64,000 nt of DNA, taken from Halosegnis rubeus (GTDB taxonomy: Archaea > Halobacteriota > Halobacteria > Halobacteriales > Haloarculaceae). A program made the position numbers and the translations under genes. Position 1 is the stretch's first letter, and each line of letters begins with the position of its first letter. Positions 5,596-29,051 of this stretch are shown piece by piece. The stretch spans positions 496,001 to 560,000 of the forward strand of contig NZ_QJOW01000001.1 of assembly GCF_009184545.1 (NCBI RefSeq), in the 5' to 3' direction. The notes under the pieces are model-generated. The model did not search any database. It was given only the letters and a program-made list of their open reading frames with translations, and had not been told where the DNA came from.

Positions 5596-7415
5596 CCCGC
5601 CAGCCCCTCGACCGATAGCCCACTGACCGCGTCTTCCAGCCGTGCTACCGCTGATTTCTCTGTCCGCGAAGGATTCACTACAACGTGCAGCCGCTGTGTT
5701 CCGAGCGGGACGAAGCCGAGGCCCACCCGCTCTGCCGTCGCGCGGAGTCCGACGCCCACGTCGGCCCGGCCGTCGATCACCTGCCGGGCCGGTGACTCGA
5801 CTCCCGGGCCGGTCGCGCCTACCGGCGCGTCGTCGGCCAGCGTCTCGAACGCGGCGTGCAGCCCCGTTCCCGACGCCTGTCTCACGAGTCGCACCTCGTC
5901 AGTCAGGTCGCCGATGTCGGTCACGTCCGCTGGATTCCCACGCGGGACCACCAGCCCCCACTCGCGGCTCCACGCGCCCATCGTCTCCCCTCCGGTGTCC
6001 TCCTCACTCGTGACGAGGAAATCCGGCACGTCGTCGCTGAGCCACGACCGGGCCGCCTGCTCGCCGCGCGCGAGATACCGAGGCGGCCGGCCGCGGTCGG
6101 GAGACACTGAATCGAGCAGTCGCGACACGCCCGGCCCGCTCGCGCCCATCCCCAACAGCGCCGGCGGGCGCACGTCTGGCGAGAACAGCTCGACGGTGAC
6201 GGACTCGCCGGCCGCGAGATACTGTGTCTCAGGAGCCATCGCCACGACGCCGTCGGCGTCCGTCAGCGAGGTGGTCGCCCCCGACCCCTTGTCGACGGGG
6301 TAGACGAGCCGGTCACCGCCGCCGTCGGTCGTGACGCCCACGGGAACGTATCGGAGCCGCCCCGGCTCGAACCGCTCCTCGACGGCCATCTCACCGGCGA
6401 GGGTGGCACGCTCCGGTTCCGGACGCCCGGCGGCCTCGCGTATCGCCGGCGCGACGAACACCCGGAACGTCGTCAGCGCGCTCACCGGGTATCCCGGTAG
6501 GCCGACGTACGCCCCCTCACCGAGTTCGCCGACGAGCAACGGCTTGCCCGGCTTGACGGCGACCCCGTGGACGAGTAGCTCGCCCGTCTCCTCGATGACG
6601 CGATACACCACGTCGACCGCACTCGCGGACGTTGACCCGGAAGAGAGCACGAGGTCACACTCCTCGCTGGCCCGTTCGAGCAGGTCGGCCATCGCGTCGA
6701 AGTCGTCGCCGACGTGCGGGTATCGCTTCGGCTCCCCGCCGGCTGCCGCGACTGCGGCGGCTATCGTCGGCGCGTTCACGTCGTGTATCTGGCCCGTGCT
6801 GCTGTCGAGCGGCTCTCCGACCGGCACCAGTTCGTCACCTGTCGAGATGATACCAACCGTCGGACGCGCCCGCACGGGGACCGACTCGATGCCCAGCGCG
6901 GCGAGCAGTCCCGTCTCGCGCGCGGTGAGTCGCGTCCCCGGCGGCAGCGCGCGATCACCGGCCGAGATGTCCGCCCCGGCGGGCATGATTCCCGACCCCG
7001 GCGTCAGAGCGGTCTGGACGAGTCTCACGTCTCCGTTCTCGTTCGTCTGTTCGACCATCACGACGGCGTCGGCTCCCGACGGCACGACCGCGCCGGTCGA
7101 AATCTGGACACACTCGCCCGGTCCGACAGTCCCGTCCGGCTCCTCGCCGGCGTGGACCGTCCCGACGGCCGGGAGCGAGACCGGATTCGTCTCGCTCGCG
7201 CCGGTCGTATCGCTCGCTCGGAGCGCGTAGCCGTCCACGCTCGCCCGGTCGAACCCCGGCACGTCGAGCGGAGCGTCGAGTCGCTCAGCGAGCACGCGCC
7301 CGCGGGCCTCGGAAAGCGGAACCTGCTTGATGCCGGGGTCGATACCCAGTCCGGCGACAATGTCTCGAAGCTCCTCGGGCGGCGTGAGCGTCCGGAACTG
7401 CTTGCGGTCGCTCAC
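5544..7415 (-). CDS. moeA: MoeA molybdopterin molybdenumtransferase fused to a PBP/LysR-substrate-binding-like domain
   Basis: 623 residues from a GTG at 7415 that overlaps the upstream moeA-like stop (GTGA). Residues 1 to about 410 are a standard MoeA: VPGFDRASVDGYALRA (the conserved S-x-D-G-Y-A), the MoCF-type SSGSTSASAVD and HGVAVKPGKPLLVG, then LPGYPVSAL. The C-terminal 200 residues are a periplasmic-binding-protein-like domain of the type fused to MoeA in archaea, perhaps a molybdate or cofactor sensor. The enzyme inserts molybdenum or tungsten into adenylated molybdopterin. It is co-transcribed with the degenerate paralogue upstream and convergent with the HAD gene. Confidence 0.92.
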   Translation of the reverse strand: MSDRKQFRTLTPPEELRDIVAGLGIDPGIKQVPLSEARGRVLAERLDAPLDVPGFDRASVDGYALRASDTTGASETNPVSLPAVGTVHAGEEPDGTVGPGECVQISTGAVVPSGADAVVMVEQTNENGDVRLVQTALTPGSGIMPAGADISAGDRALPPGTRLTARETGLLAALGIESVPVRARPTVGIISTGDELVPVGEPLDSSTGQIHDVNAPTIAAAVAAAGGEPKRYPHVGDDFDAMADLLERASEECDLVLSSGSTSASAVDVVYRVIEETGELLVHGVAVKPGKPLLVGELGEGAYVGLPGYPVSALTTFRVFVAPAIREAAGRPEPERATLAGEMAVEERFEPGRLRYVPVGVTTDGGGDRLVYPVDKGSGATTSLTDADGVVAMAPETQYLAAGESVTVELFSPDVRPPALLGMGASGPGVSRLLDSVSPDRGRPPRYLARGEQAARSWLSDDVPDFLVTSEEDTGGETMGAWSREWGLVVPRGNPADVTDIGDLTDEVRLVRQASGTGLHAAFETLADDAPVGATGPGVESPARQVIDGRADVGVGLRATAERVGLGFVPLGTQRLHVVVNPSRTEKSAVARLEDAVSGLSVEGLAGYERVDAPNSSSKSETR

Positions 7416-18123: not shown

Positions 18124-18198
18124 GGGTTGGTGGTCTAGTCCGGTTATGACACCTCCTTCACACGGAGGAAGCCGGCGGTTCAAATCCGCCCCGACCCA
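18124..18198 (+). tRNA. tRNA-Val(CAC)
   Basis: 75-nt cloverleaf. Acceptor GGGTTGG pairs with CCGACCC (one G-T). The anticodon arm CCTCC-TTCACAC-GGAGG gives anticodon CAC. The T-arm is GGCGG-TTCAAAT-CCGCC, with discriminator A and no encoded CCA. The gene is intact. Its last 14 bases plus one are repeated at 30835-30849, marking it as the attachment site of an integrated element. Confidence 0.95.
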
Positions 18199-18199: not shown

Positions 18200-18722
18200 A
18201 CGCGGCACGTACGGATTGTATTCGACTGTATTCCTCGGTTTTAGGCCTTCTAACCGAAGAATCTGTTATATCGACGTAGATTTCGAGGTCGTGAATCCAT
18301 TCGGTCGTTGCACGCGGAGACCCTCCGTATAGCGATCCGGTTATTGACAACGGTTGCTCATATATAAACGTGGGTGCTGATGGGTGGCTCTGGAGCGCGC
18401 AAGAACTGCCCGTGGACTTGGCCTTCCCGATGGGCAGTTGCTGTCTGGTACGGACAGCCCTACGACCTCGTACGCGTCTTCAAGATCAGTTGGCGTGCGC
18501 CCTGACCAGTGGACTTCGGTTCGGGGAGGCGGCATCATACTCACGGTTCAAATGCCCACGGAGCGGTGCGTGGGCGACCCCCTCGGATTCCCTCACGACC
18601 AATTCGTTAAACTCGACGCGGTACTCTTCGCGTCCCGCGCGGATTCTCGTCTATGTTCCAACTGAGAAGAGGCTGGAAGTCACAATCCTTCACCCGGGGG
18701 ATTCCGACGGTATAGAGGCTTG
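18200..18722 (+). other. non-coding left end of the element, possible structured RNA
   Basis: No convincing gene. A strong TATA box (TATATAAA, 18360-18367) is followed by three perfect stem-loops: AACTGCCC/GGGCAGTT (18404-18439), immediately GCTGTC/GACAGC (18440-18458), then GCCCACG/CGTGGGC (18554-18575). Short reading frames on both strands lack a start and family resemblance. A structured transcript is possible; degenerate coding remnants are the alternative. Confidence 0.35.
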
Positions 18723-18776
18723 TTGTAAACTAAAATGCGGAAGATCTTTTAACTGTTAAGACAATATAGTTTACAA
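18723..18776 (+). promoter_or_regulatory. operator-like inverted repeat around the AbiE-like promoter
   Basis: Perfect 10-bp arms TTGTAAACTA (18723-18732) and TAGTTTACAA (18767-18776), with a 34-bp spacer that contains the TATA-like TTTTAA (18747-18752). The second arm ends two bases before the ATG. This fits autorepression by the winged-helix protein encoded next, as known for AbiEi antitoxins. Confidence 0.65.
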
Positions 18777-18778
18777 AG

Positions 18779-19735
18779 ATGCTTACGAAGGCCGGGCTCG
18801 CTATTCTAGACGTACTGAGTCTCGGGGGGGATGTAACCGCACAAGAGCTGGCTGTAGAAACCGGGTATAGTCGCAAGCAGGTCTACCGCGTCGTTGACGA
18901 CTTACTCGACAAAGGGGTACTGGACGAGTCCAGAGCGCAGCACAATCAGCGTGTCCTGCGCGCCTCTGATGATCCGATTGTCGAAGCGTACCGGGACCTG
19001 ACATCGAACCTCGGGCACGTGGACTGGGCGGACCTCCTCTCACCGGCCACGATACAGGTCTGCTGGTACCTTGATGAACCACGCCGCATCACCACGATCG
19101 CTGACCGATTAGGAATTACGCGACAGGCTGTCCACAAGGCGTTATCCCCGTTGAAGAACCGAGCGATGCTCGCTCCCGCCGGCCCAGAGTACGCACTCGC
19201 CGACGACCTTCACCCCTTACTCGAATTCGCCAACACCGTCGTCAGGCATGGCCACCGCAACCGTGTTCGGCGACTCGCGCCCAGTGCCACAATTGCGTGG
19301 TATGACCCGAAACGCGCGCTCGTCCAAGTACAAACCTCCGAAGACACGGAGAAACTCCAGAACGCCGACGACTGGGACGTGACTGGATTAGCGGAATTCC
19401 AAGCGTACGGCCTGCAGTTCTTCCTTGCAGGAGAACCCGCCTTCTGGTACGCGCCAGACGACGATCTCACCCTTGCAGACATCGTTTGCCATACGCTCGT
19501 CCTCAACACTGACTCCCGACGCGTGAGCTACGCGATGCTGCTCATCGAACAGGAACGAATCGAACAGGAAACACTCACCGAGACTGCGACTTGGTACGGT
19601 CTGGACTCAATGATACCCCGGATGTATCGTCTCATAGACGAAGGCACCGACGCCGACGATGAGATGGAGGCGGGAAGTCCCTTGCCGAGTGCTCAAGAAT
19701 ACGCGGCGCTGAAAGATCAGTATGGAGTCGTATAA
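18779..19735 (+). CDS. winged-helix regulator, AbiEi-like putative antitoxin
   Basis: 318 residues. Two winged-helix units are visible: residues about 1-60 (VTAQELAVETGYSRKQVYRV) and about 98-150 (ITTIADRLGITRQAVHKAL), followed by a longer alpha/beta region of unknown fold. It sits exactly upstream of a nucleotidyltransferase (TAA then ATG with no spacer), the gene order of AbiE-type toxin-antitoxin or abortive-infection pairs. A perfect inverted repeat flanks its promoter, consistent with autoregulation. The sequence is not close to bacterial AbiEi, so the assignment rests on context and domain type. Confidence 0.7.
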   Translation: MLTKAGLAILDVLSLGGDVTAQELAVETGYSRKQVYRVVDDLLDKGVLDESRAQHNQRVLRASDDPIVEAYRDLTSNLGHVDWADLLSPATIQVCWYLDEPRRITTIADRLGITRQAVHKALSPLKNRAMLAPAGPEYALADDLHPLLEFANTVVRHGHRNRVRRLAPSATIAWYDPKRALVQVQTSEDTEKLQNADDWDVTGLAEFQAYGLQFFLAGEPAFWYAPDDDLTLADIVCHTLVLNTDSRRVSYAMLLIEQERIEQETLTETATWYGLDSMIPRMYRLIDEGTDADDEMEAGSPLPSAQEYAALKDQYGVV

Positions 19736-20611
19736 ATGACCGTCTTCAGCGGCGAGGAGGCCATCAAGACGTTTCTTGCCGAGTTTGACGAGTGGCTCTC
19801 AGAATCGGTGGACGTGTACCTCCTTGGCGGGTCTGCAATGACAGTTCGGGGGCTGAAAGATCAAACCGAAGATATCGACTTGGCTCTCGGCGTGCCAACC
19901 GAATTCGAACACGTCTATCACGCCCTTCGAGAACAAGGGTTTCAGGTGACGGGTGAGCCGACCGCGTCATTCGAAGGGGTCGGAAAAACGGTTGAGCTCT
20001 ACCATCCCGACCGCGGGTTTCGGGTTGACTTGTTCGAGCAACAGGTTGTCGGGAAAGTCTGGATCACAGAGGGCATGCACGATCGGGCGGACGAGTTCTG
20101 GACAGGGGAACGTGCAACGGCGTACGTGCTCGCTGATGAGGATTTGTTCTTGTTGAAGGCAGTGTCCGGCGGCGACTTAGGAGCTGGCAGACGACGCGAC
20201 ATTGAGGATATGCGGACGTACGCGCAGCGTGGACTCGCCTACGAAGTGATCCTCAACGAGATTGAGGAACAGCGCCCGTTCAATACGGGGTCAATTGAAG
20301 CGACGCATATCCGTAATCAATCTCATCCGTTATTTACTATCGAGGTGGCTGTACAGTCGCTTTCCGGGCTGCCATCCTCGTTTACAGATCGCGTGTCGGA
20401 GTTCGCAACCGAATTCGAAGTTGAGTACGGTATCTTGGAAGCGGTCGATGAGGGTCTTCGGAGTCCACGCGCGATCAGCGAACGTGTTCTTTCGAACGTC
20501 CGAGAGCTCTCCGTTGGCGACGAGGAGGCGGTGTCTGCTGGGATCGATCGTCTCGTCGAAAAGGAAATTCTTGACCGAGAAGGGGATACTGTTCACCCCT
20601 CGTCCAACTAA
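19736..20611 (+). CDS. nucleotidyltransferase, AbiEii/DUF6036-like putative toxin
   Basis: 291 residues. The polymerase-beta fold nucleotidyltransferase motif is visible: VYLLGGSAMTVRGLKDQ (G-G-S) followed by TEDIDLALG with the D-x-D pair, and a third acidic residue in RVDLFEQ. The C-terminal about 80 residues (YGILEAVDEGLRSPRAISER...) look like a winged helix. Related proteins act as toxins that modify tRNA or protein, or remain uncharacterised. It is directly fused in the operon to the winged-helix gene, which would act as antitoxin and repressor. Confidence 0.75.
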   Translation: MTVFSGEEAIKTFLAEFDEWLSESVDVYLLGGSAMTVRGLKDQTEDIDLALGVPTEFEHVYHALREQGFQVTGEPTASFEGVGKTVELYHPDRGFRVDLFEQQVVGKVWITEGMHDRADEFWTGERATAYVLADEDLFLLKAVSGGDLGAGRRRDIEDMRTYAQRGLAYEVILNEIEEQRPFNTGSIEATHIRNQSHPLFTIEVAVQSLSGLPSSFTDRVSEFATEFEVEYGILEAVDEGLRSPRAISERVLSNVRELSVGDEEAVSAGIDRLVEKEILDREGDTVHPSSN

Positions 20612-20661
20612 CTCGCTGCTTTCGAATCTCTCAGTGACGGCACTGGGATGAGGATGGCAAG

Positions 20662-20747
20662 CGTTCGGCAGTACGTCTCTGGGTACGTACTTGTGCACAT
20701 CCATGTGTACGTCCACAAGTACGTGTGTACGTACATTCTGCCGAACG
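20662..20747. repeat. 86-bp nested inverted repeat
   Basis: Outer arms CGTTCGGCA (20662-20670) / TGCCGAACG (20739-20747), middle arms GTACGT (20671-20676) / ACGTAC (20729-20734), inner arms GTACTTGTG (20687-20695) / CACAAGTAC (20714-20722), with many extra GTAC tetramers. It is non-coding and lies between the nucleotidyltransferase and the convergent ATPase gene. Possible roles: bidirectional terminator, recombination or replication site, or recognition site for an element-encoded nuclease. No other gene is evident in 20612-20953 except the doubtful small frame at 20794. Confidence 0.6.
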
Positions 20748-20793
20748 TTAGTACTCCCAGCGGAGATCCGATATCGAGGTACTGATAGCGATC

Positions 20794-20967
20794 ATGGACG
20801 GAACGCGACCAGAACCAACCTACGTATTAACAATCCAATCCAGCGGTGTAGTGCCGTGGGATTTCCTCGTCTCCGGACGGGGGAACATGTTCGTCTCGTT
20901 CATTTGTTGGTTGTTCGTCGTATATACGTTCCCTTGGATTAGTAGCGAAGCACTCAGGACGGCGTGA
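20794..20967 (+). CDS. doubtful 57-residue ORF with one hydrophobic segment
   Basis: Begins MDGTRPEPTYVLTI and contains FVSFICWLFVVYTFPW, a possible membrane helix. It overlaps the end of the convergent ATPase gene by 14 bp. A TATA-like element is not obvious and I recognise no family. It may be chance. Confidence 0.2.
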   Translation: MDGTRPEPTYVLTIQSSGVVPWDFLVSGRGNMFVSFICWLFVVYTFPWISSEALRTA

Positions 20968-22345
20968 GTAGGTCGTCGATGTCCGCTACGCTGAACAGGG
21001 ACCATGAGTCGTCGAGTTGTGCTTCGAGTCCGTCGACGAACCCGTTTTTCGAGAACAGGGCGAACTGCTCATCTCGATTCGACGGTCCCCATCGGACGTT
21101 CTCCGCCTTTGCTCGCAGGCTCTCGACGAGGTCTTCCCCGACCGGATCCGTCGTCCACTTACATTCGGCGAGGAGGACTCGGTCGTCGTTCGGTGCCAGC
21201 CCGACGATATCGATCTCCTCTTGTCCGTACCACCAGCGACCGACTTCGGAGTACGGTTCGAATGCGCCACGTCGAATCCCTTCCCAGACGACTTCTTGGC
21301 ATACGTCCTCGAACGTGGTTGCGACGTGCGTTGGGAGGTCCGGTTCAATCGTCCCCTCGTACACGATTTCCGGTGCTTCCTCGATACTGGATCGATGCGG
21401 CTCGACATACCGAAACCAGAACCGAAGGAACTCGTCCGCAACTCGGTACCGTGACCGCTTCGATTTCTTCCCCGAGGCCGTGACTGGGACATCTCGTTCG
21501 ATGAGGCGGAGGCGGCGAAGTGTCTGTAGGTACTTCGAGAGCGGTCCCGGATCGATTCCCGTTGTGCCGGAGATTTCGTTCGGTGTTGTATGGCCCAGTG
21601 CGACTGCTTCGAGGATGCTCATGTACCGGGCTGGGTTTCGGAGCTCGGTGCGCAGGAGGAACTCGGGCTCGTTATACAGTACCGCAGATGGTGATAGGAC
21701 GTGTGATCGAATGTTCGCCGCGAGCGACTGGTCGTAGTCGAACAGCGTGAGGTACATCGGGGTACCACCCGTGACGGCATACGAGCGAACCGCGTCCCTG
21801 AAGTCGTACGAGATGACCTCTCGGGCCTGTTGAAACGAGAACGGCGTTACGTCGAGTTGGGCCGTTTGTCGCCCGTACAGTGGGCTCTCGTGCCCCAGGA
21901 TCTCTGACTCCATCGTGCTCACGCTCGACCCACAGAGCACCAGCATCGAGTCCGTCCCATCAAGCTCCTGGTCAACGAACGCTTGTACGTACGACGGGAG
22001 CGAGTCGTTCTCTTCGACGAGATACGGGAACTCGTCGATGACGACGACAAGATCCTCTCGCTGGAGGTTCTCCCCGAGGTATTCGAACGCTTCGTCCCAA
22101 CTGTCGATTCGCGGGACGCGCTCATCGAAGTAATCCGCAACTTGCTCAAGGAACTTCTCGCGCTGTCGATGCTCGGCTTCCTGCGCGGCAAGGAAGTACA
22201 TGTGGGGACGGTCAGCACAGAATTCTTTGAGGAGTTCCGTTTTCCCAACCCGACGCCGGCCATAGACGACAACGAAGTCCGAACCGGGGGACTCCACCGC
22301 AGCGGTGAGTGTATCGAGTTCTTCCTCCCGGTCGTAGAAGGTCAT
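20954..22345 (-). CDS. archaeal AAA ATPase with C-terminal DUF234 nuclease-like domain
   Basis: 463 residues. The AAA domain has Walker A GRRRVGKTELL (about residue 30) and Walker B LVVVIDEFPYL (about residue 100). A winged helix follows (ISGTTGIDPGPLSKYLQTLR, near residue 260). The C-terminal DUF234 region has EEIDIVG ... LLAECKW, the D-x(n)-E-x-K pattern of restriction-endonuclease-fold proteins. Such ATPases are common on archaeal mobile elements and have been linked to toxin-antitoxin or defence functions without proof. It follows the helicase operon by 154 bp and has its own upstream A/T-rich sequence with a repeated GATAATGA, so it may be transcribed separately. Confidence 0.88.
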   Translation of the reverse strand: MTFYDREEELDTLTAAVESPGSDFVVVYGRRRVGKTELLKEFCADRPHMYFLAAQEAEHRQREKFLEQVADYFDERVPRIDSWDEAFEYLGENLQREDLVVVIDEFPYLVEENDSLPSYVQAFVDQELDGTDSMLVLCGSSVSTMESEILGHESPLYGRQTAQLDVTPFSFQQAREVISYDFRDAVRSYAVTGGTPMYLTLFDYDQSLAANIRSHVLSPSAVLYNEPEFLLRTELRNPARYMSILEAVALGHTTPNEISGTTGIDPGPLSKYLQTLRRLRLIERDVPVTASGKKSKRSRYRVADEFLRFWFRYVEPHRSSIEEAPEIVYEGTIEPDLPTHVATTFEDVCQEVVWEGIRRGAFEPYSEVGRWWYGQEEIDIVGLAPNDDRVLLAECKWTTDPVGEDLVESLRAKAENVRWGPSNRDEQFALFSKNGFVDGLEAQLDDSWSLFSVADIDDLLTPS

Positions 22346-22499: not shown

Positions 22500-25400
22500 T
22501 CACTCCTCGAACCCGGGACCGACGGTAAACGAGGCCGGCGCGCAGGGAAGTTGGTTGTGCTGACACCACCGGCAGTGCTCGCCCGAAGTGTACCGACTGA
22601 ACGAGAACTCAGCAATATCGTTCATCGACGACGTCACGTCATCTCTGACTGCTTCCAGATCACTTTCGCTGAATGTTCGGGATTCAACTTTTGGACCGAT
22701 GTCTCCGACATAGGCGTATCCCGCACGTGCTACAGGTCCATCGTACAGGTCACGGCACGCTAACAGGTAGATTGGGAGTTGTTTGTCGTCCTGTAGGTCG
22801 CGGTGGCGTTCGGTCGCCTTGTAGTCGATGACGACCAGTTCGTCGTCAGGCGTCCGGTAGACGGCGTCAATGTAGCCGACGAGTTCGTGCCCATCGATAT
22901 CGAGTTCGAACTCTCGCTCCGCGTCGATGATCTCGTAACTGGGGAGATCTAACTCGAAGTACCGGTCGATGCATTGTTTTGCCGCCGGGAGCGCGTCCTC
23001 AGCGCGGCGCTGACTGGCGAGTCGCTCGCAGATCTCGTACCACTCTTTACGGCGTTTCACATCTTGATTTGCAGCTTGCTCGGCGGTGTCGTGGAACAAC
23101 AACCCGATTGTACGTTGCGACACGCCATCACCGGCGTCGCTTGTGGTCTCTTGGTAATCGGGGAACGCGTTGACCACGTAGTCCAGGTAGTGGCTCCGCG
23201 GGCATTCCTCGTAGGCGGCCAGCGACGTGTAGCTGTGCGAGAGCGGCGGCGACGGTGCCGACGGGCCAGTCAGCGACGTCACTTGGAGTGTCTCTCGCTC
23301 GACGCTCGGTGAGAGATCTCCGTTGAGAGTGGCTGTTGCGAAGTCTAGGACGCGGTCGCGCGCAGCTTCGACTGCGAGTTCTTCGCCGTCGTGATTGACG
23401 GTCCCACCAACATCGCCGACTGTCTCGCTGGCCAGTGTGTCAGTCCAGTTTGCCGTCTCGTCCGGGAGACACTCTTGGACGTCCCTCCAGAGCGGGAGGT
23501 GTCCTCGCTTTGGCTGCCATGGGATTTGAGATGGAAGCATTTCGTCAACAATCTCTGAAACAGAGTTCTCGCCCTCACCGTTGTCGTCTTCTTCGCTGCC
23601 ACCCTGCAGGACGAGGGCGTCTTCGGCACGCGTGATCCCGACGTGGAACACGCGGCGGGTCTCACGAGCATCCCGCTCGACGAAGTCCTGCGCGAACGCT
23701 GCTTCCGCACCATCCGAGAGGCTGGTTTCGAGCGCGTCGTACGTACGTGAGCTCGGGGCCCATTCATCAGCCGTGATTTGCGGGATGAGGACAACCGGGA
23801 AGTCTAGGCCCTTGCTTTTGTGGATGGTCATCACGTTGACCGCGTCGTCAGCGACGTCCGGCTGACTCGTGGGTGTGGTGCCACTCTCGTCGAACAGGGA
23901 GTCGTAGTGTTCCAGCGAGTCGATGAACTCCGGGGTGAGCGGTGGTTGGACGGCACTATCCCCGTACTGTTCGATGACGTCCTCCAGCTGGGCGAGGTCT
24001 CGGCGTTCCTGTTCGCTGAGGTACCACTCGATGTTCGTGATGTCCGTGAGTTCGCGGTACAGGTGACTGAGCGACGCCGAGTCGCGGAGTTCGAGTAGTT
24101 CCGTGGCATGCTCGCGGGCTTCTGCGACGCGCTCAGGCTCCTCGAACTCGTCGAGCGGCGTCTCCCGGAGTGTGTCCACGAGCGGATCGTCGCCCGCGTT
24201 GAGCGTGCGAAGGTCTGCGTCGCACACACGGTAACGCATCAGGAGGACGCGATTCCAGCTTACCTCGTCTTCGGGGCGTGCGAGTGCCTTCAGGTAGGCA
24301 GTGACGGTTCCGACGCCGACTGATTCCGTGGCAAGATCGCCAGCAACCTGGTACGGGATGCCAGCATCTTCGAACTCGTCGATAACGGGTGTGGCGTGGT
24401 CGTTCTTCCGAACGAGTAACGCGATGTCGCCTGGATCGTACGTCTCATCGAGGTTGTCTGCTGCACCAGTCAGTAAATTCTGTACGACAGTACGAAGTTG
24501 GGCTGCACCGTCCGAGTCGTCGTCTTCGTCCGGTAGTTCGACGGTAGCGACGGTGTCCCCGTCGTACGCGGGTTCGTCGACGCGAGTGAGTGTCTTGTGC
24601 CGTTCACGGTGGTTGAGTTTCTGAATCGCCTCGTTCGCTAGGTTGAGAATCGGCTGACGGGAGCGGAAGTTCTCCTCCAGCGGTTCGTCCGTGAGCGCCG
24701 CAAACGCGCGGTCGAGTTCGTCGGTGATGTTGGCGACGTTCGCGCCGCGCCATTCGTAGATCGCCTGATCGTCGTCCCCGACGACGAACAGATTATCGTC
24801 GGTAACGAGTGACGTGACGAGGTCGAACTGGAGGCGATCCGTGTCTTGGAACTCGTCGCAGAATACGTAGTCCCACCGCTCGGCGATTTCCTCACCAACC
24901 GGCGAGTCCATCAGGGCAGCTGTCTCGACCACCAGGCCGTCGAAGTCAATGAGATTTCGCTCGTCCAGTTCTCGTTCGTACGCAGCGTACCCTGCGGTGA
25001 GATCTCGGGCAGCAAGACAGTCGGAAACAAACGAGTCGAGGTGGTCCGTGAGTTCAAGATCCAGATTGTCTGGGATCCCTTTCGGAGCACCGCTTGCGTA
25101 CCCTCCGAACAGGTACTTCGGGAGTTTGTACGCGTTGTCTGGCAGGTTACGCTCGCCATCTTCGTGGGCCTCGAACGCGGTTTCAAGCGCAGCACACAGA
25201 TCGACGAGCCGGTCGAGGAAATCCCGAGCACTGGCTTCGATCCCGTCCGTTCCCAATGCATCGCGTTCCGCGGCGAACTCATCGCGCACATCGGGAAGTG
25301 AGTCCAGCACGCTCGACACGGACCGGCCGCCGAGATTATCGCTGGCAATCGTTTCGATGCGTTCCGGCAGGTCGGCGAGATCGTAGACGCGGTCGGCGGG

Positions 25401-25955
25401 CCCGAGGAACGCGTCGATGTCGGCTGGCGAGATGCCGCTGCGCTTCATCGACCCGATAAAGCTGAGCAGCTTCGACGCAGCTCCGGACGCGTACCCGTCG
25501 CTGCCGTACACGTTGGGTTTGACCGACCGGTACTCGATGTCGTCCAAAACATCCAGCACGATAGCGTACTTCTCGGCGTCCGTGGCGACCTCGAAGTCCG
25601 GGTCGATCCCGGCTTCGTAGGCGTAGTCAGTGAGAATCTCGTTACAGATCGAGTGGTACGTGTACGCGTCGATGTCGTACCCCGCTGTCCCGAGTTTCGC
25701 GTTAAGCTTCTCCCGCATCGAGTCCGCCGCGTTGTTCGTGAACGTCAACGCGAGAATCCGGTCCGGCGAGACGTCTTCCTCGTCGATGAGGTGCTCGATC
25801 TTCCGCACCATCGTGAACGTCTTGCCCGTTCCTGCTCCTGCGAGCACACGCATCGGGTACGCATCGGAGTTGATGATTGTCCGCTGTTGAGGCTCTGGGG
25901 ACACGTCTTCTTCCGGCACCGGGAACCAAGACGGGTACTCGGACTCGTCGCTCAT
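22500..25955 (-). CDS. UvrD/AddA-like helicase fused to a C-terminal Fe-S RecB-type nuclease
   Basis: 1151 residues. All SF1A motifs are present: Walker A AGAGTGKTFTM (about residue 40), motif II FCDEFQDT, motif III VGDDDQAIYEWRGA, motif IV EENFRS, motif V VMTIHKSKGLDFPVV and motif VI VGITRAEDAL. From about residue 950 a PD-(D/E)XK domain follows: YEECPRSHYLDY, HDTAEQA, LVGYIDAVY with ELVVIDYKA, and CRWCQHNQLPC. The four cysteines would hold a 4Fe-4S cluster as in AddB/Cas4. This is the active motor-nuclease of a RecBCD/AddAB-like complex. Its start overlaps the end of the preceding nuclease gene by 4 bp. Confidence 0.92.
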   Translation of the reverse strand: MSDESEYPSWFPVPEEDVSPEPQQRTIINSDAYPMRVLAGAGTGKTFTMVRKIEHLIDEEDVSPDRILALTFTNNAADSMREKLNAKLGTAGYDIDAYTYHSICNEILTDYAYEAGIDPDFEVATDAEKYAIVLDVLDDIEYRSVKPNVYGSDGYASGAASKLLSFIGSMKRSGISPADIDAFLGPADRVYDLADLPERIETIASDNLGGRSVSSVLDSLPDVRDEFAAERDALGTDGIEASARDFLDRLVDLCAALETAFEAHEDGERNLPDNAYKLPKYLFGGYASGAPKGIPDNLDLELTDHLDSFVSDCLAARDLTAGYAAYERELDERNLIDFDGLVVETAALMDSPVGEEIAERWDYVFCDEFQDTDRLQFDLVTSLVTDDNLFVVGDDDQAIYEWRGANVANITDELDRAFAALTDEPLEENFRSRQPILNLANEAIQKLNHRERHKTLTRVDEPAYDGDTVATVELPDEDDDSDGAAQLRTVVQNLLTGAADNLDETYDPGDIALLVRKNDHATPVIDEFEDAGIPYQVAGDLATESVGVGTVTAYLKALARPEDEVSWNRVLLMRYRVCDADLRTLNAGDDPLVDTLRETPLDEFEEPERVAEAREHATELLELRDSASLSHLYRELTDITNIEWYLSEQERRDLAQLEDVIEQYGDSAVQPPLTPEFIDSLEHYDSLFDESGTTPTSQPDVADDAVNVMTIHKSKGLDFPVVLIPQITADEWAPSSRTYDALETSLSDGAEAAFAQDFVERDARETRRVFHVGITRAEDALVLQGGSEEDDNGEGENSVSEIVDEMLPSQIPWQPKRGHLPLWRDVQECLPDETANWTDTLASETVGDVGGTVNHDGEELAVEAARDRVLDFATATLNGDLSPSVERETLQVTSLTGPSAPSPPLSHSYTSLAAYEECPRSHYLDYVVNAFPDYQETTSDAGDGVSQRTIGLLFHDTAEQAANQDVKRRKEWYEICERLASQRRAEDALPAAKQCIDRYFELDLPSYEIIDAEREFELDIDGHELVGYIDAVYRTPDDELVVIDYKATERHRDLQDDKQLPIYLLACRDLYDGPVARAGYAYVGDIGPKVESRTFSESDLEAVRDDVTSSMNDIAEFSFSRYTSGEHCRWCQHNQLPCAPASFTVGPGFEE

Positions 25956-26854
25956 CGTTGCACCTCCGTGGACAGTCGGTCAGCACACATCTCTCGATAG
26001 TCGCAGTCCGGGCACGCCTCCTCAGTAATAAGGTCGAGCGGTTCCGGCTCGTACGTCTCACCCGTGATACCATCGTGGGCCTCCCGGATGAGCGCCCAAA
26101 TCGTGTCGTAGTGGTTCTCGTAGATTTCCGTGGTTTCCCGAGGCCAGCCACGCGCGGACACGTCGTATCCGTTCGGGGTGCTCTCGAACGACGTGCTGTT
26201 GAGGATCCCGTAGAAACTGAACCGAACCTCCATCCCGTCCTCATAGAACGGTTCGTTCTTCACGCCTTCGACGTATGTCGCCGTCTGGAACGCGTTCCGG
26301 ACCCGCTTCGGTTCGTGGGCTTCTCCGTCGAAATGGTCGCCAAGGTACTCGGCCGTCCCCGACGAAAGAACCCCGTCCGTGTTCCGCTTGTAGTCGAAAA
26401 TGTGCAGCCCGTCATCAGTCCGGACGACGTTGTCAGCTTTCCCGTGGAGTTCTCGACCATCCACTTCGCACTCCACCCAACATTCCGTGGCGACCGAGTA
26501 ACGAGCGTGCTCGATCCCGTCACCGCCGTCCGGATCGAAGAACGACGCGATGGCAGCGCGATTCTCAGCTCGCTGGTATTCCTGATGCGCAGCGGATTCG
26601 TAGTCATCCGGGGTACTGTGTTCGTCCCACTTCGCATCGAAAACCTCCATCGCCCGGTTGTGTATCGTCTCCGGGTCGTCATCGCGGTCAGTCGCATCAC
26701 ACACGGCCTCGATAGTCTCGTGGTAGATCGTTCCTTGGTTGAGATACAGTTCTGTACGGTCCGGCGCGTTCACGTCTTGCGCGTAGCGGTAGTCGTACAG
26801 CCGCGGACACGTCGCGTAGTTCGCTAACCGCGACGGGGAGAGCGACGAACTCAT
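25952..26854 (-). CDS. stand-alone PD-(D/E)XK nuclease, Cas4/RecB-like, Fe-S type
   Basis: 300 residues forming one RecB-family nuclease: N-terminal SRLANYATCPRLYDYRYAQD (first Cys), H in GTIYHETIEA, D in GKADNVV, the catalytic D-Y-K in LHIFDYKRNTDG, Q in FQTATYVEG, and C-terminal CPDCDYREMC. The 1+3 cysteine layout matches Cas4 and the AddB nuclease domain. Overlaps of 4 bp on both sides place it between the inactive helicase-like and active helicase genes, so it probably acts in one complex with them. There are no cas genes or repeats nearby, so Cas4 itself is unlikely. Confidence 0.9.
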   Translation of the reverse strand: MSSSLSPSRLANYATCPRLYDYRYAQDVNAPDRTELYLNQGTIYHETIEAVCDATDRDDDPETIHNRAMEVFDAKWDEHSTPDDYESAAHQEYQRAENRAAIASFFDPDGGDGIEHARYSVATECWVECEVDGRELHGKADNVVRTDDGLHIFDYKRNTDGVLSSGTAEYLGDHFDGEAHEPKRVRNAFQTATYVEGVKNEPFYEDGMEVRFSFYGILNSTSFESTPNGYDVSARGWPRETTEIYENHYDTIWALIREAHDGITGETYEPEPLDLITEEACPDCDYREMCADRLSTEVQR

Positions 26855-28908
26855 CGCCGCACCTCCCCGTTAGCGAATTCAACACGTGCACGCAACGCTT
26901 CTCGGAGCTCGTCTCCTCGGGAGCCGCTTTGTTCGAGCAGGTCCTGAATCTCTCCGAGTTCCGCTTCGACCTCGCCAAGCGACACCGTCACGTCCTGACT
27001 GTTCGCGCGGCGCACCTCCGCGAGCGCGTCGTCAACCCGCGACAACAGGTACTGCTCCGCCGCTTGCTCACTCGTAATGTGTGGCTCATCGGCCTCGGTC
27101 ACCCACGGAAGCTCCTCATACGCCGCTGTGAGGAACCGCGATGCCTGCGTACGCTCTTCGAGCGCTGTGTCTTCGTACTCGTAGAGACAACAGTAGAGCC
27201 GGTCTGTCGCCGCGCCAGCACCGACAGCCAACCGTCGCCGCGCGTGCTCCGTGTGGTACTGCGCGAACGGTCGTCCTGACGCTGTCGACGTCGTCGGGAA
27301 CGTCGCATCCACATCCGCTCCATCGAGTTCCGTTACACCCGGATAGTCCGGCATCGACGCGACTCGCTCGCTCGGGAACAACCGTGTCAGGAACGGGTCG
27401 CCTGGGTACTCACTGTCGACGAGATTCACGAGAAAGACCGCGCGGAACGACTCGTTCTTGATCGCTTGCAAGTGATCGACGCGGACGCCGCCGTCGAGAT
27501 CCGTCGCGCTCGTCTGATTCTGCTGCGGTGCGTACTCGTGGGCGCGTTCGAGCATCTTCTTGAACGACTCCCACGTCGCATCCACGAACTCGGTCTCTTC
27601 GAGGAACTCGGCCATGCGGAACGCCCGCCGGACGTTCCCGAACTGCGCCCGTGCATCCAACGGGGCCGCCCGTTCCGCGATCCGCTCTTTCAACCCAGCG
27701 TCTGTCGCCCACCAGTGAATCGTGTCTTCGAGACTCTCCGTCTCGCTGACTCGGTTCAAGCGGTCCGTATCGAGTTCCGGACCGTGGTCGGGTCCATCAT
27801 CTTCATCGTCGGCAAGATACCGAACGGCAGCGAGGAGTTCCCGAATCGCGGGGTCGTCACCGAACCCCGTGACAGTTGTCGATTCCGTCGGAATCCCGGT
27901 GCCTTCGAACGCTTCGATAATGTCCGTCACAGCACTACCGCTTTGGTTCGTGGCGACAGCGATGTCGTCGTACCCCCAGTCCGGCTGCACGACGAGCTCT
28001 TCAATCTCGTTCGCAATCTCAGCGAGTTGTTCGTCACTGGAGTCTGTAGCGAGGACGGACACCGACCCGGCTTCTGGATCTTCCGGGACCGTTTCTTCGG
28101 CGAAATAGGCTGCCGTCACAGCTGGTCGCGTCGACGGCGTCCCCGATGCCCCACATCGGGATTCGCTGAACGAGACGTAGTCCGTGACTGGCCCTGTCTC
28201 AACCCACGTCCGGCGTACACTCGCGTTCTCCTCGGCAACACAGACGAGCTCGCAGTCTCCCGCGAGCGCGTCGAGATACGCGCGATCAAGCGGGAAGAAC
28301 TCCTCAAACTCGACCGCGAGCACCGCGTCGAAATCAACGACGTCGCCGCGGGCATCCCCGGTGAGGACATCGAGCGCTTCCGAGATGAGTTGCCCGCGTT
28401 CCATGTGCCCGTGCTCGGCGAGCCACGCGTGGAACGCGTCGAGCGCAGCCGTGATGTCACGGAGTTCCGGAGTCTCGTCAGGCCTGACCGTCTGCCAGGA
28501 GATCGTACCCATCACCGCATCCACGTCCTCGATGAACGACGGCTGTGCAGACGCGCGTTGGAGGTACTCCGTTTCCCACTCGTAGTCTGCGAGGAACCGG
28601 TACAGGAGTTCCCGCCGCAGGGCGTCGGAGAGAATGACGCGGTCATCGGTCTGGTTGAGGACATCAGTCGCGTGCACCACCGACGACGTCACGTACGGCG
28701 TCGCCGCGCCCGGCAGTTCCTCACCTAACGCTTCACGGAACGTGTCCGCGCTCGTCGGCGCACCGGTGATGACGAGCACATCCTCAGAATCGTGCTCGTC
28801 GAGAAGCATTCGGTATTCGTTTCGCGCTGTCCGTTCGACGTTTTCGGCCCCGAACGGTACCGTGACTAACGTCCCGTCGAACTGCTGGTAAACAGATGAT
28901 AGTGACAC
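26851..28908 (-). CDS. AddB-like protein with an inactivated UvrD-type helicase fold
   Basis: 685 residues from the GTG at 28908; an ATG at 28986 would add 26 residues, but the codons there are A/T-rich and unlike the gene, and a TATA-like TCTAATTATC lies just inside that stretch. The layout follows AddB: an N-terminal VTVPFGAENVERTARNEY where Walker A should be but without G-K-T, VDFDAVLAVEFEEFFPLDRAYL in place of motif II, VRVDHLQAIKNESFRAVFLV in place of motif V, and RRRLAVGAGAATDRLYCCLY in place of motif VI. Unlike bacterial AddB it ends without a nuclease domain; that function sits in the next gene. It would be the scaffold or recognition subunit of the complex. Confidence 0.75.
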   Translation of the reverse strand: MSLSSVYQQFDGTLVTVPFGAENVERTARNEYRMLLDEHDSEDVLVITGAPTSADTFREALGEELPGAATPYVTSSVVHATDVLNQTDDRVILSDALRRELLYRFLADYEWETEYLQRASAQPSFIEDVDAVMGTISWQTVRPDETPELRDITAALDAFHAWLAEHGHMERGQLISEALDVLTGDARGDVVDFDAVLAVEFEEFFPLDRAYLDALAGDCELVCVAEENASVRRTWVETGPVTDYVSFSESRCGASGTPSTRPAVTAAYFAEETVPEDPEAGSVSVLATDSSDEQLAEIANEIEELVVQPDWGYDDIAVATNQSGSAVTDIIEAFEGTGIPTESTTVTGFGDDPAIRELLAAVRYLADDEDDGPDHGPELDTDRLNRVSETESLEDTIHWWATDAGLKERIAERAAPLDARAQFGNVRRAFRMAEFLEETEFVDATWESFKKMLERAHEYAPQQNQTSATDLDGGVRVDHLQAIKNESFRAVFLVNLVDSEYPGDPFLTRLFPSERVASMPDYPGVTELDGADVDATFPTTSTASGRPFAQYHTEHARRRLAVGAGAATDRLYCCLYEYEDTALEERTQASRFLTAAYEELPWVTEADEPHITSEQAAEQYLLSRVDDALAEVRRANSQDVTVSLGEVEAELGEIQDLLEQSGSRGDELREALRARVEFANGEVRR

Positions 28909-29051
28909 GGAATCGACCCTCGGATAATTAGAAACGTTGGTTGATTCTGTGATAAGAGTACTCCTAATTCCGCTATTTCTCTCCATCTACTCGCGCAGTT
29001 TGTCGGCAAAGCGTCTATACCTCCGTGTTGAGTTGTCCGGAGATGATGGTA

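What the first reader, a model, noticed from the sequence alone, without database searches (positions are those of the whole stretch)
18723..20611. AbiE-like winged-helix/nucleotidyltransferase pair with a perfect operator-like repeat
Two genes with no spacer encode a double winged-helix protein and a D-x-D nucleotidyltransferase with a C-terminal winged helix. Perfect 10-bp inverted arms bracket the TATA box just before the first ATG. This matches AbiEi/AbiEii architecture and its negative autoregulation, yet the winged-helix protein has a long unknown C-terminal part and is not an obvious AbiEi. It may be an archaeal-specific toxin-antitoxin type.
Basis: partly seen in the sequence, partly recalled or inferred. 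Interest (0 to 1): 0.6.

Follow-up and report, generated by a model that had tools for sequence, protein, structure and literature searches.

The report
Archaeal MenT-like toxin–antitoxin candidate with conserved operator
A mobile two-gene module, common in salt-loving archaea but unnamed, pairs a DNA-binding protein with an enzyme folded like a tuberculosis growth-stopping toxin; the comparative evidence suggests a poison-and-antidote switch that represses itself, though nobody has tested it.

Summary
Gene A (18779-19735) has two winged helices plus a 120-aa HVO_2833_C domain (PF24271). Gene B (19736-20611, no spacer) is a DxD nucleotidyltransferase with a C-terminal winged helix. Perfect 10-bp arms bracket the TATA box.

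It is built like AbiE but is not AbiE: neither protein matches the AbiEi or AbiEii Pfam models, and a canonical abiEi-abiEii pair lies elsewhere in the same genome. B folds most like MenT1 (Z 12.5), keeps MenT1's phospho-acceptor threonine without exception, and sits in the DUF6036 neighbourhood.

New evidence:
- A occurs in 124 of 194 haloarchaeal genomes, B in 96. Every intact B I could check lies directly behind an A, also in other Halobacteriota families.
- A survives alone in 29 genomes. B is broken beside an intact A 19 times, the reverse once.
- The TATA-centred dyad recurs in four clades with different sequences.
- Natural A-B fusions exist, one in this genome.
- The pair moves between genera as a 93-98% identical cassette.

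Best reading: a mobile NTase toxin (B) with an autorepressing antitoxin (A). Toxicity, DNA binding and neutralisation are untested. A new variant of a known kind.

The parts
18521..20903 (.). mobile cassette: segment 93-98% identical in other genera with unrelated flanks (right edge about 20734-20747 in some, 20903 in others)
   Evidence: blastn of the window against loci L204-L208 and L239; edges read
18522..18534 (+). CGGGGAGGCGGCA, 3' end sequence of tRNA-Phe at the left edge of the cassette
   Evidence: in L204 and L205 the cassette begins inside an intact tRNA-Phe(GAA) gene, 6726-6799
18723..18732 (+). left operator arm TTGTAAACTA
   Evidence: clade-wide symmetry and covariation
18747..18752 (+). 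TATA-like TTTTAA, on the dyad axis 18749.5
   Evidence: sequence; promoter role inferred
18767..18776 (+). right operator arm TAGTTTACAA, 2 nt before the start codon
18779..19735 (+). gene A: predicted autorepressor/antitoxin, 318 aa
18779..18970 (+). A winged helix 1 (residues 1-64)
19037..19198 (+). A winged helix 2 (residues 87-140)
19280..19732 (+). A C-terminal domain (residues 168-318, contains PF24271), predicted toxin-neutralising part
   Evidence: PF24271 E 5.7e-51; role inferred
19736..20611 (+). gene B: MenT1-like / DUF6036-like nucleotidyltransferase, predicted toxin, 291 aa
19748..20290 (+). B nucleotidyltransferase core (residues 5-185; GG, T44-x-D46-x-D48, D98, K141, R152, D155, D158)
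   Evidence: invariant columns; fold
20375..20605 (+). B C-terminal winged helix (residues about 214-290)

Best explanation
A horizontally mobile toxin-antitoxin module. Gene A is the antitoxin and autorepressor: its two tandem winged helices bind a dyad whose half-sites have an outer and an inner element about one helical turn apart. The dyad is centred on the TATA box and reaches to 2 nt before the start codon, so bound A should block the basal transcription factors of its own (near-)leaderless promoter. Gene B is the toxin: a MenT1-like nucleotidyltransferase that most likely transfers nucleotides to tRNA or another RNA and stops translation when free. The C-terminal PF24271 domain of A neutralises B, most likely by direct contact (natural A-B fusions), possibly by promoting phosphorylation of the invariant active-site Thr44, the residue that aligns with MenT1 Thr39. 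When A is depleted (loss of the element, infection or stress) repression lifts and B is freed. Shown by computation here: pairing, operator conservation, asymmetric loss, fold, catalytic motif, mobility. Inferred: DNA binding, toxicity, neutralisation, substrate, trigger.
For: B lies directly behind A: 84 adjacent pairs with A full-length and 9 fusions among 154 loci; at genome level both 95, A only 29, B only 1 of 194, the single B-only genome holding a 60-residue fragment; the pairing persists in other Halobacteriota families. Asymmetric decay: B broken beside intact A 19 times (non-redundant), A broken beside intact B once (L048, whose genome has an intact close A; binomial p 4e-5), and B losses are scattered over the tree. 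Solo A is under purifying selection (median dN/dS 0.17), so A itself is not toxic. Operator conserved in four clades. B: best PDB fold MenT1 8an4, Z 12.5, 178 of 189 residues, rmsd 3.3, Foldseek E 7.6e-6 to the MenAT1 complex, and the only relevant PDB sequence hit is MenT1, E 0.007. Thr44 invariant. Mobility: near-identical cassette in several genera and 91 haloarchaeal plasmid records. AbiEi precedent: autorepression through promoter inverted repeats (PMC3985639).
Against: No experiment. Several equally good fold neighbours of B are not toxins (LnuA Z 11.5, TM1012 11.9, ANT(2'') 11.0). A alone in 29 genomes may mean that A has its own regulatory job. The C-terminal domain of A has no detectable relation to a known antitoxin domain. 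Some broken B genes may be assembly errors, and solo and broken loci sit in mobile regions where decay is common.
Confidence: 0.66

Rival explanations
1. Regulator plus resistance or housekeeping enzyme: B is a non-toxic nucleotidyltransferase acting on a small molecule (as LnuA or ANT(2'')) or on RNA, and A is a ligand-sensing repressor whose C-terminal domain binds the inducer.
For: LnuA and ANT(2'') are close fold neighbours (Z 11.5 and 11.0). A resembles MarR/ArsR-type regulators in its N-terminal part and the operator blocks the promoter. A persists alone.
Against: MenT1 and the MenAT1 complex are the best fold and sequence hits. Intact B was never found without A although enzymes of this kind need no linked regulator. 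B is preferentially destroyed while A is kept. A single-chain A-B fusion is odd for a repressor that must leave its enzyme.
Confidence: 0.15
2. Pure autoregulated defence effector: B is an antiviral nucleotidyltransferase activated by infection and A its sensor-repressor; not an addiction module.
For: The closest relatives sit directly before an N6-methylase and a PLD-family restriction nuclease; in the window the next gene is a PDC-S27 candidate defence ATPase and then UvrD/PD-(D/E)XK genes.
Against: Other subfamilies sit on plasmids and integrative elements beside an ArdC-like gene (my reading), TFB and PCNA genes rather than defence genes. TA and defence roles are not exclusive (AbiE is both).
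Confidence: 0.12
3. Roles reversed as in HEPN/MNT: the nucleotidyltransferase B is the antitoxin that modifies A.
For: In HEPN/MNT the nucleotidyltransferase is the antitoxin (PMC7641770, abstract).
Against: A has no HEPN or nuclease domain and survives intact without any B in 29 genomes under purifying selection.
Confidence: 0.03

Closest known systems
MenAT (M. tuberculosis MenT1/MenA1, MenT3/MenA3)
   Same: B has the MenT1 fold (Z 12.5) and the invariant T-x-D-x-D whose Thr aligns with MenT1 T39; two-gene module with antitoxin and toxin.
   Different: B carries an extra C-terminal winged helix absent from the MenT1 match (aligned to residue about 210); A is not shown to be related to any MenA; toxicity and tRNA modification untested.
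AbiE type IV toxin-antitoxin system (AbiEi/AbiEii, DUF1814)
   Same: Regulator-first bicistron, winged-helix regulator that by inference binds long inverted repeats over its promoter (S. agalactiae: perfect 11-bp arms, N27 spacer, PMC3985639), pol-beta-type nucleotidyltransferase; distant profile similarity of B to AbiEii (score 29.9 against at most 15.9 for shuffles).
   Different: No PF08843, PF13338 or PF09407 match; GG-to-DxD spacing 13 instead of 15 and no motif II arginine; two winged helices instead of one; PF24271 C-terminal domain; a genuine AbiE pair co-exists in the genome.
DUF6036 nucleotidyltransferases (PF19502) and HVO_2833_C proteins (PF24271)
   Same: 22 of 32 B homologues match PF19502 (best E 1.4e-9); public plasmid records call the 32%-identical relatives 'DUF6036 family nucleotidyltransferase'; A matches PF24271 strongly.
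   Different: The window's own B does not reach PF19502; neither family has an assigned function, and the records annotate the two genes separately (hypothetical protein; MarR-family regulator) without linking them.

Membership tests
AbiE (type IV TA) | toxin of the AbiEii/DUF1814 family (PF08843) | tested here: not met
   no match for B or any of 32 homologues at E 0.01; the separate AbiEii gene of the same genome scores E 2.5e-42
AbiE (type IV TA) | antitoxin with AbiEi winged helix and AbiEi C-terminal domain (PF13338, PF09407) | tested here: not met
   no match among the 25 best families for A whereas the genome's real AbiEi passes both cut-offs; C-terminal domains not alignable above shuffles in a meaningful way
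AbiE (type IV TA) | motif II arginine and GG-x15-DhD spacing specific to DUF1814 (PMC3985639) | tested here: not met
   GG-x13-DID and no conserved arginine in motif II in 32 homologues
AbiE (type IV TA) | bicistronic, antitoxin gene first | tested here: met
AbiE (type IV TA) | autoregulation through inverted repeats in the promoter | tested here: inconclusive
   conserved dyad on the TATA box; binding and repression not testable here
MenAT / NTase toxins | MenT-type nucleotidyltransferase fold | tested here: met
   MenT1 Z 12.5, 178 of 189 residues; sequence E 0.007
MenAT / NTase toxins | active-site Ser/Thr two residues before the first Asp of DxD (phospho-acceptor T39/S78, PMC11375011) | tested here: met
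   Thr44 invariant in 32 homologues, also in fusions and in the methanogen-side relatives read
MenAT / NTase toxins | growth inhibition relieved by the cognate antitoxin | not testable with these tools
   needs expression in cells
DUF6036 (PF19502) | Pfam gathering score | tested here: inconclusive
   window B has no hit; 22 of 32 homologues hit at E 0.01 or better, and L184, L188 and the fusion L004 pass the cut-off
HEPN/MNT | HEPN-domain partner | tested here: not met
   no HEPN match among the families listed for A; partner is winged helix plus PF24271

The most novel reading that the evidence does not exclude
Probability: 0.22. Interest if true: 0.72.

Novelty: new variant of a known kind. 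Interest (0 to 1): 0.52.

Why it matters
PF24271 is found in about two thirds of the haloarchaeal genomes sampled, has no assigned function, and the two genes are annotated apart. If the reading is right it names one of the commonest toxin-antitoxin modules of haloarchaea, gives the HVO_2833_C domain a function, adds a third kind of antitoxin to the MenT/AbiEii-like nucleotidyltransferases, and offers a test of whether antitoxin-induced toxin phosphorylation (MenAT1, MenAT3) reaches archaea. The operator, with arms that change between clades while staying symmetric, is a clean system for the evolution of repressor specificity in archaea.

Tried and rejected
AbiE membership: rejected by Pfam tests with a positive control from the same genome. 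Homology of the A C-terminal domain to the AbiEi C-terminal domain: the best hhalign register pairs the expected helices but the score (14.7) barely exceeds column shuffles (up to 13.3); not claimed. PDB search with that domain alone: one weak hit, ANT(6)-Ib, E 0.096; not claimed. A mixed alignment for modelling the natural fusion smeared A rows into B and was dropped. The count of structure pairs on A8 had the brackets in the wrong columns and is disregarded; the symmetry test replaces it. Viral contigs and phage records: no relative of B in either, none of A in phage records. HVO_2833 and DUF6036 are absent from the paper library. A second att copy of the tRNA-Phe end that would bound a full integrative element was not found in the window.

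Full report
What is in the sequence. Gene A (18779-19735) and gene B (19736-20611) are co-directional with no spacer. A combines two winged helices with the Pfam domain HVO_2833_C (PF24271, E 5.7e-51); its AlphaFold model is very confident (pLDDT 95.1). B is a nucleotidyltransferase with a C-terminal winged helix (model pLDDT 88). The perfect arms TTGTAAACTA / TAGTTTACAA (18723-18732, 18767-18776) flank TTTTAA, and the right arm ends 2 nt before the ATG, which implies a leaderless or nearly leaderless transcript (inference from the usual distance between TATA box and start in haloarchaea).

Distribution and linkage. PF24271 occurs in 124 of 194 haloarchaeal genomes, patchily, up to six copies. 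The window's B finds relatives in 96 of the same genomes. Both occur in 95, A alone in 29, B alone in one, where the hit is a 60-residue fragment. In 154 loci fetched around A or B hits I count 84 adjacent pairs with A full-length, 9 fused genes, 33 full-length solo A and 21 (19 non-redundant) with intact A and a truncated, frameshifted or interrupted B. A broken A beside an intact B was seen once in mid-contig (L048): it has lost the N-terminal winged helix but keeps the C-terminal domain, and its genome has another close A. Two broken B genes have no A nearby (L120, L136). In other Halobacteriota families 12 of the 14 matches inspected still have A directly upstream (L181, L182, L184, L186-L194); the two without are fragments (L195, L196).

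Reading of the asymmetry. B is lost or broken many times on the A tree (scattered 'frag' and 'none' labels), while A stays intact and under purifying selection whether paired (dN/dS 0.15-0.31) or solo (median 0.17). B is also under purifying selection where present (0.09-0.20). A is therefore not harmful alone and B is not kept alone: the pattern of antitoxin and toxin. The alternative, that B simply needs A, is not excluded by this alone.

The operator. In the window's clade the upstream region is symmetric about -29.5 (51% paired outside the central 16 bp, against 27% for other axes), and exchanging halves among sequences lowers the match (269 against 236.9 +- 8.2, none of 5000). Three other clades are symmetric about -27.5: TGTAACACTACTCGAAACTT-N10-AAGTTTCGTACTATGTTACA (57% against 22%), TTGCAAAATACCGAA..TTCGCTAGTATGCAA (49% against 22%) and a fourth with 70% against 25%. 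A smaller clade (5 representatives) showed none. Half-sites have an inner element (offset 8-12) and an outer one (18-25), about one helical turn apart, which would suit two winged helices per protomer; that assignment is inference. The arms lie around the TATA box and at or before the inferred start, so this is a DNA operator rather than an RNA hairpin.

What B is. Sequence searches link B only weakly to named families: NTP_transf_5 below cut-off for the window protein, DUF6036 for 22 of 32 homologues, MenT1 as best PDB sequence (E 0.007). By fold the best match is MenT1 (8an4, Z 12.5, rmsd 3.3, 178 of 189 residues), then the MenAT1 complex, TM1012, LnuA, ANT(2''), MenT3 and MenT4; ranks 1-6 are nearly tied. 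The catalytic signature is invariant, including Thr44 two residues before Asp46, which the alignment puts on MenT1 Thr39, the auto-phosphorylation site induced by MenA1 (PMC11375011).

Why it is not AbiE. AbiE is defined by a DUF1814 toxin and an AbiEi-family antitoxin (PMC3985639). Neither is met, while the same genome has a textbook AbiEi/AbiEii pair (G000:C9, L162). B has distant profile similarity to AbiEii, well above shuffles, as expected within the pol-beta superfamily. So it works like AbiE or MenAT in outline but is a separate lineage with a different antitoxin.

Fusions. Nine loci, one clade, encode A and B as one chain of 549-553 aa, one of them in this genome (L004). A and B therefore probably act in contact, which favours neutralisation by binding over the non-interacting type IV model.

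Mobility and context. The stretch 18521 to about 20747 or 20903 is 93-98% identical in Halosimplex, Halorussus, Halovenus, Haloplanus and Salinibaculum with unrelated left flanks. In L204 and L205 it starts inside the 3' end of tRNA-Phe; the window keeps the last bases of that tRNA next to a different gene, tRNA-Val at 18124-18198. In five of these relatives the next genes are an N6-adenine methylase and a PLD-type nuclease, a probable restriction-modification system. In other subfamilies the pair sits on plasmids or integrative elements. Solo A genes sit tail to tail with an Mrr-like gene, VapBC, PadR-like or methylase genes (names are my reading of the translations).

Best explanation and limits. 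A mobile nucleotidyltransferase toxin-antitoxin module with an autorepressing antitoxin, confidence about 0.66. Shown: linkage, asymmetric loss, operator conservation, fold, motif, mobility. Inferred: which is toxin, the mode of neutralisation, the target, the trigger.

Noticed in passing
window 20662-20747: 42-nt near-palindrome just behind gene B; relatives carry one to several extra copies of a roughly 30-nt unit GTACGTCTCTGGGTACGTACTTGT (a variable tandem repeat) inside it, and it marks the right edge of the shared cassette in several genera.
   Followed up: partly
window 18124-18198 and 18522-18534: tRNA-Val(CAC) gene, then 320 bp later an orphan 13-nt tRNA-Phe 3' end at the left edge of the cassette; in L204 and L205 the same edge lies in an intact tRNA-Phe, and L208 has tRNA-Phe plus a second copy of its 3' end.
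   Followed up: partly
window 20954-22345 (-): AAA ATPase plus DUF234 protein matching the PADLOC candidate defence family PDC-S27 (E 1.6e-58), convergent with gene B.
   Followed up: no
window 22500-28986 (-): Three overlapping genes: UvrD-type helicase with PD-(D/E)XK domain, a second PD-(D/E)XK nuclease and a 711-aa protein without Pfam match; looks like an AddAB-type helicase-nuclease set.
   Followed up: no
L204 9255-15162, L205 8968-13873: N6-adenine methylase and PLD-family (NgoFVII-like) nuclease directly behind the pair in the closest relatives: a probable restriction-modification system travelling with it.
   Followed up: partly
L006 and 14 similar loci: A stable clade of solo A genes without B, tail to tail with a convergent Mrr-like restriction-endonuclease gene; A may have acquired a separate regulatory role there.
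   Followed up: no
L004 637-2295 (G000:C6) and 8 relatives: Single-gene A-B fusions of 549-553 aa, highly conserved among themselves (mostly 81-97% to L004).
   Followed up: partly
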